Positions 19,521 through 22,367 of a stretch of 64,000 nt of DNA are shown one piece after another. The stretch covers positions 2,237,810-2,301,809 of the forward strand of contig JACBWW010000051.1 of assembly GCA_020086605.1 (NCBI GenBank), in the 5' to 3' direction. Below the pieces are notes generated by a model. It was not told where the DNA came from. It made no database searches and saw only the letters and a list, made by a program, of their open reading frames with translations. The position numbers and the translations under genes were made by a program. Source of the stretch: Lanius collurio (lineage: Eukaryota > Chordata > Aves > Passeriformes > Laniidae). The number at the start of each line of letters is the position of its first letter. The stretch's first letter is position 1.

Positions 19521-20125
19521 TATGCTCTGCTCTCCTCCCCAAGCATTTCTAAAGCCTCAGTCTCAAGAATAAAAACTTGGAATACTTCCAGAGGAAAGTA
19601 TGTCCATTACAAAAGTTTCTAATGTAATTTGGGTCTTTTTAAACGAGAGCAGTTCTTTCCTTACAGATGGGAAAGGCGACCTTTAAAATAAGCTTTATTG
19701 CTGTGATAACATATTGTATCGCTTTGCGCTTACATTGCAGTCAGGGGATTTTATAGAATATAACATTCTTTAGTCACTTCATCTCTGTGAATTAGCTAGC
19801 TTTTGAAATTAAGTCTGTACTAATCTGATGGGTAATTCTTCCAGATTTAAGTGTCTTGATTCAGAATTTTTTTATATGTTGGATGATATGGTTTCAATTG
19901 TGGGTTACTTTTTTTTTCCAGATAAGGAAATAGGGGTTCTTGACTGTGCCTAATGACTTAACCATTTTGTGCAAAGAAAAAGTTGACATTTATGCAAACA
20001 TACGAACTGCAAGAATGAAGTCCATGTACCTTAAAAAACAAAACAAACCCACCTTGTAGGTTTTGTAGAGTCTCAGAGCTCACAGAAAATACAAAGATAA
20101 ATGGCCTAACACCCTGGAAAAACAG
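19521..20125. other. Non-coding stretch before the LTR element
   Basis: AT-rich sequence with no recognisable gene or repeat. It forms the host flank at the 3' end of the minus-strand LTR element. Confidence 0.5.
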
Positions 20126-20131
20126 CAAAAC
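20126..20131. repeat. Target-site duplication, left copy
   Basis: The hexamer caaaac directly abuts the left LTR. Its partner at 22362-22367 is gaaaac (5 of 6 match). Confidence 0.7.
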
Positions 20132-20417
20132 TGTTGTAATGAGGAATCTTTACAACGTGTATAAGACAGCGATGAATGCTGGAAGGAAACATGAAGTGAT
20201 ATCTGACGGACGTTCAGAGCTGTTTATTCCCCCAGCCCACACGGCTGCAGCTCCCAGGCAGACTCCTCAGCCACGGCACCCCGAGCCCTTCCCGGGCACA
20301 CAAACCAACCAATCAGGAGCAGGGATGGGGCACACGTGACCTGGGAGCAGGGGCAGGGGCAACCCGTGCATGCACGGCCCCCCTTCCCCTCAGGGCTTTG
20401 GGCGAGGTATCCCAACA
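20132..20417 (-). repeat. 3' LTR of the Y-box-carrying element
   Basis: This 286-bp LTR begins TGTTGGGATACC and ends CATTACAACA on the minus strand, giving the inverted ends TGTTG...CAACA. An AATAAA lies on the minus strand at 20228-20223 and is a likely polyadenylation signal. An inverted CCAAT box (plus strand ccaaccaatcagg, about 20308) and an E-box CACGTG (about 20334) could be promoter elements. There is no obvious TATA box. It aligns along its whole length to 22084-22361. Confidence 0.85.
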
Positions 20418-20434
20418 TTTCACCCTTTGTTTTT
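20418..20434 (-). promoter_or_regulatory. Polypurine tract
   Basis: On the minus strand the 17 bases directly before the 3' LTR are purine-rich (aaaaacaaagggtgaaa). That is where the plus-strand primer for retroviral reverse transcription sits. Only the single C and T interrupt it. Confidence 0.65.
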
Positions 20435-20665
20435 CAATAAAATGAGCATTGGATAACAGCTGGATAAACAAAACAAAACAATTGCAAAAGAAAATAAGCT
20501 AAATTCTGGAGTCCCCAAGTATCCAACAGATTTTCTTTGGAGCAGCAGAAGGGAGACAGGACTCTGAGCATGCTTTATGTGGAAACTGAGTCAGGAGAGG
20601 GGTTTTTTTTTCTGTACCTGTTGGAATCTTTGAAAATGTTGGTTAATTTCTTCCCTCCCTCCTTT
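20435..20665 (-). other. 3' untranslated region of the element
   Basis: About 230 bp between the end of the Y-box-like frame and the polypurine tract. No open frame or known motif is visible on the minus strand. It may be residual host 3' UTR or element sequence. Confidence 0.4.
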
Positions 20666-21101
20666 TTATCCTCCCATTGGCATTGCAAAGGGGTTCATGG
20701 CAAACGGAATAGCTTGGTTTTGTGAGGGGAACCAGAATGGGAAATTTGGATTGGGCATATATGGGGAATAAAGGGGCATGGGATAAAAGGGAAAGGTAGG
20801 ATGGGGAAAAGGATAGGGATTATGGGTATACTGTCTAGTGTTGCTGTAATTTGGAGCATATCTACTACCCTTCACAGAACAACCCCAGGGCCTGTAACTC
20901 TGCTTGAGGGCCCTTTCTTCCTTGTACAATTTTAAATTCTACTTTTTCTCCCTCTCCTAAGCTGGAAACATGCCTTTCGGGGTCATTTTTTATAATGCTA
21001 GATTTAAGCACAAATATATCTTCTTTTGTATCATGCCTAATTATTAAACCGTAATTATTCTTTCTGTTGTACCACTTCACAGTCCCCAAAACTTTAGTCA
21101 T
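20666..21101 (-). pseudogene. Captured Y-box-binding-protein-like gene: cold-shock domain plus Pro/aromatic tail, frameshifted
   Basis: Cold-shock domains of the Y-box family bind single-stranded RNA and DNA and regulate mRNA translation and stability. Starting at the Met codon at 21101 the frame opens MTKVLGTVKWYN, continues NNYGLIIRHDTKEDIFV and then GEGEKVEFKIVQGRKG. This is a clear Y-box-type cold-shock domain of about 65-70 residues. Of the residues known to stack on nucleic acid in human YB-1, the equivalents of Trp65 and Phe85 are kept, while those of Phe74 and His87 are both Leu. After about 20900 the homology moves frame twice, near 20897 and near 20877, each fitting a one-base loss. 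As written, the domain frame ends at a TAG at 20867-20865. Beyond the shifts a third frame gives the family's post-domain motif (VKGSRYAPN) and then about 50 residues rich in Pro, Phe, Tyr, Asn and Met, ending at TAA 20668-20666. The usual basic/acidic C-terminal repeats of Y-box proteins are absent. The domain has no introns, which implies mRNA-based capture. Which host paralogue was the source cannot be told from this sequence. Confidence 0.85.
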
Positions 21102-21650
21102 GATAACCTTTTCTTCTTTCCGTGTTGCTGTGTTCTTGCTTTCACTTTCGGTTTTGCTCGCTCTCGTGCCGGGGCTGCCACTGTAGGGGTCTGAGCGCTC
21201 CCACCGCATGGTCCTGGCTTCCCTGCATGGGCTGGGGCTGTGCCGCTTCGCTTTGCCAGCTCCTCCTCTGCTTCCTCTGGCCACAGCACACACACCGCTG
21301 CCTCTGCCGGGCTCCCACGTGGCTGCCCAGGCTCGGTGCCGCCCCGCTCTGCACCGTCCCGTTAACCGGGCTGCCCCAGCAGCCCCACGCAGCTTCCCCT
21401 CGCCGGCATCGCTTGTGTGTCTCAGGGCAAACACCGCCGGGCCCGCGCTGCCGCTCTGCTCCTGGCTCCACTCCTGCCGCCGCCGTGCCTGGCTTCGCTC
21501 CCGCCGTGCCTGGCTCTGCCTCTGCCATGCCTGGCCTCACTGGCTCTCCCACACGTGGGAGCTCCCTTGCCACTGCCCGCGATGCACTGGGCACCCGCGG
21601 CTGGGCTGCGCGGTCTCTGGGGCAGTGGAGGAGCCTGTCGCAACGCGCTG
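21102..21650 (-). other. GC-rich linker with imperfect coding repeats between Gag-like and cold-shock segments
   Basis: About 550 bp of markedly GC-rich, CpG-containing sequence lies inside an AT-rich window. Around 21465-21540 a unit of about 20-24 bp (plus strand gccgtgcctggct...) repeats three times imperfectly. In the frame that continues from the Gag-like segment this reads as Ala/Pro/Gly/Glu repeats of PGTAGAKPGTA type. Two frames are open through parts of it. One continues from the Gag-like frame to a stop at 21144-21142, and the other runs from about 21434 into the cold-shock domain. It could be a proline-rich Gag spacer, the Ala/Pro-rich N-terminus and 5' UTR of the captured Y-box mRNA, or both. 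The sequence alone does not settle this. Confidence 0.55.
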
Positions 21651-22014
21651 TGCTTGACCACGTGTTTACCACTAGAACAGGAGTGGGACACAGTCGATAT
21701 TGCTCAACAGTCTCTATAATTAGGTAATATTCATGAAAATAGTCTTGCATCAGCATATGTTTTGATTCAGAAATTTACTGTGTCCAAACATTCTCCCAAA
21801 AGTCTTTGGTAAGTATTAAATCCCGAGAAACGTAGAAGAAGTCTTTAAACAACCATGCTGGGAAGTATCTTAGTTCTTTTTGAGCTTGAATTAAGCTAAA
21901 ATCTACATACTGCTCTTTAAGAACCTTTTCAAGTTTAAAGTAAAAGTCTCTTTGTGGCTTGGACAACCACGTGTCTGTCCACGCTTCCTCCATGGGGATG
22001 GAACAGCAAAACAA
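21651..22014 (-). pseudogene. Gag/matrix-like N-terminal open frame (broken by one stop)
   Basis: A minus-strand frame begins at 22014, with a well-placed ATG at 21993 (context cccATGg) about 90 bases after the 5' LTR. It encodes a charged and aromatic segment that looks helical, including LSKPQRDFYFKLEKVLKEQ and FPAWLFKDFF. A single TAA at 21777-21775 interrupts it. The same frame stays open afterwards (ISESKHMLMQDYFHEYYLI...) into the GC-rich linker. Position right after the leader and length fit the matrix part of an ERV-K-like Gag, but I cannot assign it by a diagnostic motif. There is no N-terminal Met-Gly for myristoylation, and no capsid major-homology region or zinc knuckle follows. 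The Gag label is an inference from position and character. Confidence 0.45.
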
Positions 22015-22065
22015 AGCGAGAAGAGAAATTCAGAGTTTACTCACAAATCCAGGGATCGATATTTC

Positions 22066-22083
22066 CCCAGCATCTCTGCTATC
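22066..22083 (-). promoter_or_regulatory. Possible primer-binding site (initiator-Met tRNA-like)
   Basis: Immediately after the 5' LTR the minus strand reads gaTAGCAGAGATGctg. Eight bases, TAGCAGAG, followed by ATG, match the complement of the 3' end of initiator methionine tRNA (tggTAGCAGAGGATGG). The first bases are altered, as expected for an old copy. The match is short, and other primers are not excluded. Confidence 0.4.
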
Positions 22084-22361
22084 TGTTGTAATGAGGAAAC
22101 TTTACCACGTGTATAAAACAGCGATGAATGTTGGAAGGAAATAAGAAGTGAAATTCTTTTAGATGTTCAGAGATGTTTGTTTTCCCCCAGCCACATGGTT
22201 GGCATCCCGAGGCAGACATCACGGCACCCCAAGCTCTTCCTGGGCACACAAACCAACCAGTCAGGAACAGCTATGGGGCACACGGGACATGGGAGCAGGG
22301 GCAACCTGTGCATCCCGGGCTCCCCCCTTCCCCCCAGGACTTTGGGCGAGGTATCCGAAGA
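22084..22361 (-). repeat. 5' LTR of the Y-box-carrying element
   Basis: This 278-bp sequence aligns along its length to 20132-20417. Shared blocks include atgaggaa, gcgatgaatg, gggcacacaaaccaacca and tttgggcgaggtatcc. Differences are many, including a changed outer end (cgaaga in place of caaca-type) and loss of the AATAAA. It has decayed more than the 3' LTR at the polyadenylation signal. The 6-bp flank gaaaac follows at 22362. Confidence 0.83.
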
Positions 22362-22367
22362 GAAAAC
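22362..22367. repeat. Target-site duplication, right copy
   Basis: The hexamer gaaaac abuts the outer end of the 5' LTR and pairs with caaaac at 20126-20131. Confidence 0.7.

What the first reader, a model, noticed from the sequence alone, without database searches (positions are those of the whole stretch)
20126..22367. Retrovirus-like element that captured a host Y-box cold-shock gene
Seen directly: two related LTRs, matching 6-bp flanks, a polypurine tract before the 3' LTR, and between them, in the same minus-strand orientation, an intron-free cold-shock domain with the Y-box hallmarks (KVLGTVKW, DTKEDIFV, GSRYA). Known: Y-box proteins are abundant mRNA binders that retroviral RNA would meet in the cell, and host-gene capture by retroviruses happens through mRNA. 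Inference: this is a non-autonomous transducing element, possibly one copy of a family that used the cold-shock protein for RNA binding or packaging. I do not know of a description of such a family.
Basis: partly seen in the sequence, partly recalled or inferred. Interest (0 to 1): 0.92.

Follow-up and report, generated by a model that had tools for sequence, protein, structure and literature searches.

The report
Mobile family carrying captured Y-box domain
A retrovirus-like element in an unnamed, likely bird, genome is one decayed copy of a large mobile family in which a host-type RNA-binding (Y-box cold-shock) domain, likely captured from a spliced host message, is fused to a second, likely virus-derived domain; both domains appear to have been kept by selection, so the stolen part probably serves the element rather than sitting there by accident.

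Summary
The window copy (20132-22361, minus strand) has two LTRs, a purine tract and an intron-free Y-box cold-shock domain (CSD); the flanking 6-mers match at 5 of 6 bases. Genome-wide the CSD search scored 150 matches of 1235 candidates. Of 36 CSD loci read (window copy included), 31 carry this element's 5' interior and 19 show LTRs on both sides in its orientation. Of the 40 best young LTRs, 18 form 9 pairs 2.04-2.07 kb apart, all 9 around the CSD or its partner domain. Young copies have near-identical LTRs, 6-bp target duplications and one ~500-codon frame: helical N-terminal domain, basic linker, CSD, proline/aromatic-rich tail; no pol, protease or env domain was recognised in L043. The host YBX1 CSD is split by three introns; the element has none. 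dN/dS is 0.13-0.40 in most sets (0.47-0.49 in one), also in loci found without the tested domain. Best reading: one ancient capture, then a long-lived non-autonomous retroelement whose protein likely binds its own RNA while another retrovirus's enzymes copy it. Helper, matrix identity and RNA binding are unproven.

The parts
20132..20419 (-). 3' LTR of the element
   Evidence: direct repeat of 22084-22361; 40 scored genomic matches of 2333 candidates
22084..22361 (-). 5' LTR of the element
20126..20131 (.). target-site duplication, left copy CAAAAC (5 of 6 bases match the right copy)
   Evidence: sequence; 6-bp duplications in relatives
22362..22367 (.). target-site duplication, right copy GAAAAC
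   Evidence: sequence
20420..20434 (-). polypurine tract before the 3' LTR (minus-strand reading)
   Evidence: sequence
22055..22083 (-). primer-binding region, decayed here; relatives read AATGGTGGAGAATGC.. next to the LTR
   Evidence: a tRNA-Ala-like assignment is recalled, not tested
21685..21993 (-). N-terminal domain (helical in a low-confidence model, matrix-like by position), broken by a stop at 21775-21777
21150..21684 (-). GC-rich linker region (basic, Arg/Pro/Gly-rich in intact relatives)
20868..21101 (-). intron-free Y-box cold-shock domain (Pfam hit 20898-21086)
20669..20938 (-). frame-shifted continuation: GSRYA and proline/aromatic-rich tail
   Evidence: in frame in L040, L041, L043

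Best explanation
This is a decayed copy of a large family of short LTR retroelements that carry an intron-free host-type Y-box cold-shock domain, likely captured once from a spliced YBX message and fused in frame to a likely Gag-matrix-derived domain, giving a protein that is predicted to bind the element's own RNA while reverse transcriptase and integrase would come from another retrovirus. Shown: the repeated LTR - N-terminal domain - CSD - LTR order with different target duplications, the single ~500-codon frame in young copies, no recognisable pol, protease or env domain in the L043 frames scanned, absence of the introns that split the host YBX1 CSD, shared derived CSD residues, and dN/dS well below 1 on both domains. 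Inferred: that the N-terminal domain is a matrix, that the CSD took over a nucleocapsid or RNA-chaperone job acting in cis, and that mobility is supplied in trans. Different N-terminal types are paired with the same CSD lineage, which fits template switching between co-packaged RNAs.
For: Family: CSD 150 scored of 1235 candidates, N-terminal domain type A 150 of 1272, type B 150 of 1072. Architecture: of 36 CSD loci (window included), 31 carry the 5' interior, 24 a 5' LTR, 26 a 3' LTR, 19 both. Young LTRs: of 40 scored, 18 in 9 pairs, all around the CSD (8) or the N-terminal domain in a 505-codon frame (1). N-terminal searches: leaving out loci already known from the CSD search (L058, L068, L069), 4 of 5 type-B and 2 of 2 basal-type loci carry the CSD. 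TSDs: of 13 LTR-paired loci examined, 6 exact 6 bp, 3 with 5 of 6 bases. Frames of 499-518 codons in 13 of 150 CSD hits, 12 of them with an N-terminal hit in a frame of equal length, the 13th read directly (L044). No pol, protease or env match in 9 of the 13 frames of 70+ codons listed for L043. Host YBX1 CSD in four exons. One origin: F15Y 45 of 45, R18K 45 of 46, E64Q 44 of 45 rows, 3 of the 46 rows being repeats; tree rooted on host YBX1. Selection, crossed so that the tested domain did not find the locus: CSD 0.27 (0.13-0.57), N-terminal domain 0.40 (0.30-0.53) among 22 CSD-found loci and 0.20 (0.12-0.32) against young copies. Mosaic: N-terminal type needs seven changes on the CSD tree, four forced by well-supported branches; shuffled mean 9.2.
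Against: No helper with these LTRs or leader was found in four retroviral stretches compared, of which three cover only the gag side. The N-terminal domain has no Pfam match and only a chance-level NCBIfam match (E 0.039); the profile comparison with class II matrix domains is weak (P 0.01, probability 4%, 45 columns); fold models are poor (pLDDT 65 and 56) and matched no structure well. One crossed CSD set, against an LTR-found copy, gives 0.47 (0.27-0.89). Of 18 wrong-frame control values 5 also fell below 0.8 (0.42-0.71: N-terminal +1 and antisense, one CSD +2 set). The crossed CSD set has 4 loci only. RNA binding and cis preference are not shown.
Confidence: 0.65

Rival explanations
1. A chance retrocopy of a Y-box mRNA landed inside one LTR element, and the rest is coincidence.
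For: The window copy alone is broken and could look like this.
Against: The same collinear order recurs in many loci with different flanks, the CSD shares an open frame with the N-terminal domain in 13 of 150 hits, and no poly(A) signature follows it.
Confidence: 0.02
2. The family was amplified as an accidental passenger: the captured CSD has no function for the element and conservation reflects sampling and youth.
For: Many loci were ranked by protein similarity, which favours low dN; many copies are broken; some wrong-frame controls are below 1.
Against: Low dN/dS also where the tested domain was not used to find the locus; frames are still open in young copies although the family has old, diverged members.
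Confidence: 0.13
3. The protein acts mainly as a transcription factor on its own LTR: a CCAAT/Y-box sequence CTGATTGG sits in the LTR, and Y-box proteins were named for such sites (recalled).
For: CTGATTGG occurs in 27 of 45 LTR copies, among them the window's 3' LTR; binding of YB-1 to the Rous sarcoma virus and other retroviral promoters is stated in PMC6040738 (passages).
Against: The best window over this motif ranks 23 of 234 in conservation; it is not found in 18 of 45 copies; CCAAT boxes are common promoter elements (recalled).
Confidence: 0.12
4. An autonomous retrovirus with a CSD-containing Gag exists, and the 2.3-kb elements are its deletion derivatives.
For: One CSD frame (L039) lies upstream of CCHC nucleocapsid-like, protease-like and RT frames on the same strand.
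Against: That pol belongs to an abundant gamma-like family (150 scored of 727), and a nested insertion explains it; none of the 9 young LTR pairs is wider than 2.07 kb. Only the 40 best LTRs were scored, so a rare long form could be missed.
Confidence: 0.08

Closest known systems
Crocodilian ERVs with captured host mRNAs: CrocERV29 (KIT ligand) and CrocERV31 (nectin3), PMC4299795 (abstract and passages read)
   Same: host mRNA captured by endogenous retroviruses, intact frames, purifying selection reported there
   Different: there the host genes are a ligand and an adhesion protein, one added and one replacing env; here an RNA-binding domain is fused to the first frame and no pol was recognised
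Replication-defective transducing retroviruses with gag-host-gene fusions (recalled, no paper read)
   Same: host cDNA joined in frame to the Gag amino end, LTRs kept, helper needed
   Different: those are recent exogenous isolates selected for cell growth; this is a diversified germline family with an RNA-binding cargo, and its Gag origin is unproven
LINE-1 ORF1p and other retroelement RNA chaperones (recalled)
   Same: works like: an element-coded RNA-binding protein predicted to coat its own RNA
   Different: different element class, unrelated domains
Gag-only or coding-poor non-autonomous LTR elements (recalled)
   Same: short LTR element without recognisable pol, presumably mobilised in trans
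   Different: carries a host-derived cold-shock domain
Songbird TguERVL2_I with an envelope-like segment in gag, PMC6523648 (passages found by term)
   Same: bird LTR element with an unexpected domain inside the gag frame
   Different: 6.4 kb with GAG, AP, RT and RH domains; the term 'cold' does not occur in the paper's main text

Membership tests
LTR retroelement / endogenous retrovirus-like | paired LTRs with TG..CA ends | tested here: met
   pairs in all 13 loci examined, ends intact in most and decayed in some, the window included; 9 young pairs among 40 LTRs
LTR retroelement / endogenous retrovirus-like | target-site duplication of fixed length | tested here: met
   6 bp exact in 6 of 13 loci, 5 of 6 bases in 3 (window included), 4 of 6 in 1, 3 not assessable; also at a solo LTR in L047
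LTR retroelement / endogenous retrovirus-like | polypurine tract before the 3' LTR | tested here: met
   by eye in the sequences
LTR retroelement / endogenous retrovirus-like | tRNA primer-binding site after the 5' LTR | tested here: inconclusive
   a TGGTGGAG-like start is seen in relatives; match to a host tRNA not tested
Autonomous retrovirus | pol (protease, RT, integrase) in the element | tested here: not met
   no such Pfam match in 9 of 13 listed frames of L043; other copies not scanned this way
Transducing (host-gene-carrying) retroelement | host coding sequence without the host introns, inside the LTRs, in many loci | tested here: met
Transducing (host-gene-carrying) retroelement | captured frame fused to gag | tested here: inconclusive
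   fused to a conserved N-terminal domain in gag position; matrix identity weak
Transducing (host-gene-carrying) retroelement | mobilised by a helper | tested here: inconclusive
   no helper with matching LTR or leader in four retroviral stretches
Y-box protein family (YBX) | CSD closest to YBX and carrying the region after it (VTGP.G.PV.GS.YA) | tested here: met
YBX1 as source paralogue | closer to YBX1 than to YBX2 and YBX3 | tested here: inconclusive
   closer to YBX1 than YBX2 in 40 of 46 rows, tied in 6, but two majority residues are YBX2-type; YBX3 not compared over the full domain
Betaretrovirus-type matrix (Gag_p10) | sequence or profile match | tested here: inconclusive
   no Pfam match; profile P 0.01, probability 4% against three loci

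The most novel reading that the evidence does not exclude
A retroelement lineage replaced the retroviral nucleocapsid with a stolen host cold-shock domain, making a two-domain mini-Gag (matrix-like part plus Y-box RNA chaperone) that escorts its own RNA into helper particles; it has lived on this trick through several subfamily turnovers and swaps of its N-terminal domain.
Probability: 0.35. Interest if true: 0.92.

Novelty: new variant of a known kind. Interest (0 to 1): 0.8.

Why it matters
Host-gene capture by retroviruses is usually pictured as a short-lived accident that yields oncogenes or ligands. Here a captured RNA-binding domain has persisted, apparently under selection, in a numerous germline family. 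That makes it possible to test what a retroelement minimally needs to move its own RNA, and gives a natural experiment on turning a Y-box protein into a genome chaperone. If it is mobile in trans, it also shows a protein-coding but pol-less element with cis preference.

Tried and rejected
Helper search: the class II Gag matrix family gave 5 matches of 20 scored. One class II-like Gag locus (L064) and the gag side of three gamma-like loci (L065-L067) showed no LTR, leader or N-terminal DNA match to the young element at E 0.05; the LTRs of the last three may lie outside what I fetched. L047 looked like a helper with the young LTR but is a solo LTR with its own CTTGTG duplication. L039's downstream RT belongs to another ERV family. 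The 1893-aa frame is a run of masked letters (L042).

Linker and tail origin: no match of the linker to the YBX1 or YBX3 loci at E 0.01; only the CSD end matches, 44 nt at 75%. One search used wrong coordinates for its L040 pieces and is withdrawn for those.

L062, found by the type-B N-terminal domain, shows no CSD; a tail-plus-LTR fragment lies there in the opposite orientation.

Structure: two fold jobs on the window's N-terminal domain were of low confidence; searches of the PDB and of viral models gave nothing usable. Retroviral matrix folds were not listed, which excludes nothing.

Relatives elsewhere: in IMG/VR 13 stretches matched a peptide pattern but none was confirmed for the N-terminal domain (records near the window's genome may be left out there). 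In the large protein set one 123-aa ENA metagenome protein is 69% identical; the CSD piece found 12 short cold-shock proteins, the named ones bacterial.

Literature: seven searches aimed at a cold-shock domain or captured gene in LTR elements or birds and two at Y-box proteins and retroviruses. I saw the listings only (for example 20 of 304, 15 of 36, 12 of 72, 12 of 154) and passages of four papers; no listed title or abstract start describes such an element. Repbase and other repeat libraries were not available, so a library entry may exist.

LTR dating of the window copy was rejected: its 3' LTR and about 200 bp of interior are 97-100% like a copy 1.7 Mb away (one edge block 93%) but about 81% like its own 5' LTR, so conversion or recombination has overwritten it.
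Full report
What was checked. The element sits at 20132-22361 on the minus strand. Its two LTRs (20132-20419, 22084-22361) differ at 45 of 274 aligned sites. The flanking 6-mers are CAAAAC and GAAAAC. The CSD frame matches Pfam CSD at 1.8e-17 and solved YBX1 at 2e-23. The copy is dead: a stop splits the N-terminal domain, and the N-terminal, CSD and tail parts lie in different frames.

It is a family. The LTR search scored 40 of 2333 candidates, the CSD 150 of 1235. These are capped lists and unscored candidates, and the assembly seems to hold duplicate haplotypes (parallel hits on C45/C46 and C18/C19), so true copy number is unknown. Of 36 CSD loci read (L009-L044, the window copy among them), 31 hold the 5' interior, 26 a 3' LTR, 24 a 5' LTR and 19 both, counting only blastn matches in the element's orientation; 30 of them were read with 1.5 kb of flank, which hides some LTRs. 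Of 13 LTR-paired loci examined, six have exact 6-bp duplications (TAAAAT, CCTGTC, GTCAGA, GTGCTC, AGGTGA, ACTTTC), three including the window have 5 of 6, one has 4 of 6, three could not be judged.

Anatomy of young copies. L041 and L043 have LTRs without substitutions (242 and 244 aligned sites) and L040 has 6 in 244. Between them lies about 1.8 kb with one frame of 499-504 codons: a ~110-residue N-terminal domain, a basic GC-rich linker, the CSD with the Y-box continuation VTGPEGAPVKGSRYA, and a proline/aromatic-rich tail. Such frames (499-518 codons) occur in 13 of 150 CSD hits. Of 13 frames of 70 or more codons listed for L043, nine were scanned, the long one as two pieces; only the CSD matched Pfam; the N-terminal domain, taken from L040, gave nothing. 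Among the 40 best matches to the L043 LTR, 18 make 9 pairs at 2043-2072 bp; 8 enclose a listed CSD hit and the ninth the N-terminal domain in a 505-codon frame. The other 22 had no listed partner and may be solo LTRs.

Origin. None is in the element, so capture through spliced RNA is the natural inference. The 46 CSD rows (three of them repeats) share residues not found in YBX1 or YBX2: F15Y 45 of 45, R18K 45 of 46, E64Q 44 of 45. A tree of 43 rows, the repeats dropped, rooted on host YBX1, has a basal group (L033, L034, L037; support 99/95), a second early group, L024, then two large clades; the window copy is in the clade of 22, the young copies in the clade of 14. The nearest tested paralogue is YBX1 (40 of 46 closer than YBX2, 6 tied), but two majority residues are YBX2-type and YBX3 was not compared in full.

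Selection. Pooled dN/dS among young copies is 0.25 for the CSD and 0.14 for the N-terminal domain. Because most loci were found by CSD similarity, the fair tests are crossed. The N-terminal domain in all 22 type-A loci found by CSD (window included, 60+ codons) gives 0.40 (0.30-0.53), and 0.20 (0.12-0.32) against four young copies. The CSD in four loci found by the type-B N-terminal domain gives 0.27 (0.13-0.57), and 0.47 (0.27-0.89) against an LTR-found copy. The same columns in other frames give 0.8-1.6 in 13 of 18 sets, but 0.42-0.71 in five (four N-terminal, one CSD). I read this as purifying selection on both domains, moderately well supported.

Mosaic evolution. Three N-terminal types occur: A; B, at 31-37% identity to A; and a basal type, 31-34% to A. 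Leaving out loci already known from the CSD search, the CSD follows in four of five type-B loci (the fifth, L062, is interrupted by an opposite fragment) and in two of two basal loci. L036 shares 95% of N-terminal DNA with L016 (73 codons) but is nearer to L038 in the CSD (90% against 83%). On the CSD tree the type needs seven changes, four of them forced by well-supported branches; shuffled labels need 9.2 on average. Recombination during reverse transcription of co-packaged RNAs is the likely route (inference).

How it likely works. The RNA would start in the LTR; the single frame begins about 100 nt after it, and the protein pairs an N-terminal domain in the position of Gag matrix with a basic linker and a Y-box CSD. 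A selected protein in an element without recognisable pol makes most sense if it acts on its own RNA: protecting it, chaperoning it or bringing it to particles that another retrovirus makes. The 6-bp duplication is the length I recall for class II retroviruses. YB-1 is reported to support retroviral RNA stability and particle production, to associate with retroviral integrases, and to bind the Rous sarcoma virus promoter (PMC6040738, passages), so the cargo is a plausible one. A CCAAT/Y-box motif in 27 of 45 LTR copies leaves room for self-regulation but does not stand out in conservation (rank 23 of 234).

What is weak. The matrix identity rests on position and on a P 0.01 profile match of probability 4%; fold models were poor. 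No helper was found. RNA binding, cis preference and current mobility are untested. Novelty: seven targeted paper searches in the open library, seen as listings, showed no description; repeat databases were not searched. Gene capture by ERVs as such is known (PMC4299795, abstract and passages), so I rate this a new variant of a known kind.

Noticed in passing
window 20121-20600; L002 (C51:561927-565222): The window's 3' LTR plus about 200 bp of interior is 97-100% identical (one edge block 93%) to a copy 1.7 Mb away on the same contig, then drops to about 80-85%: a conversion or recombination tract that invalidates LTR dating of this copy.
   Followed up: partly
L039 (C1338:3800-8400): A CSD frame followed on the same strand by a gamma-like ERV (CCHC nucleocapsid-like, protease-like, RT); that pol family is abundant in small contigs, several copies with open frames of 1175-1181 codons (150 scored of 727 candidates).
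   Followed up: partly
genome G000, contigs C45/C46, C18/C19, C346/C347, C781/C786: Parallel or mirror-image hits suggest uncollapsed haplotypes in the assembly, so family counts may be inflated.
   Followed up: no
L043 leader, first 120 nt after the 5' LTR: A splice-donor-like GTGAGTAA and, about 30 nt on, a pyrimidine tract ending in AG before the start codon: possibly relics of a donor and an acceptor brought together by loss of the original gag-pol.
   Followed up: no
LTR alignment of 45 copies: The most conserved LTR words are TTTCCTTCCA and an E-box-containing GTCACGTGTG rather than the CCAAT box.
   Followed up: no
P0013: A 123-aa protein from an ENA metagenome contig of 531 bp is 69% identical to the N-terminal domain, so a relative occurs in at least one other sample.
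   Followed up: partly
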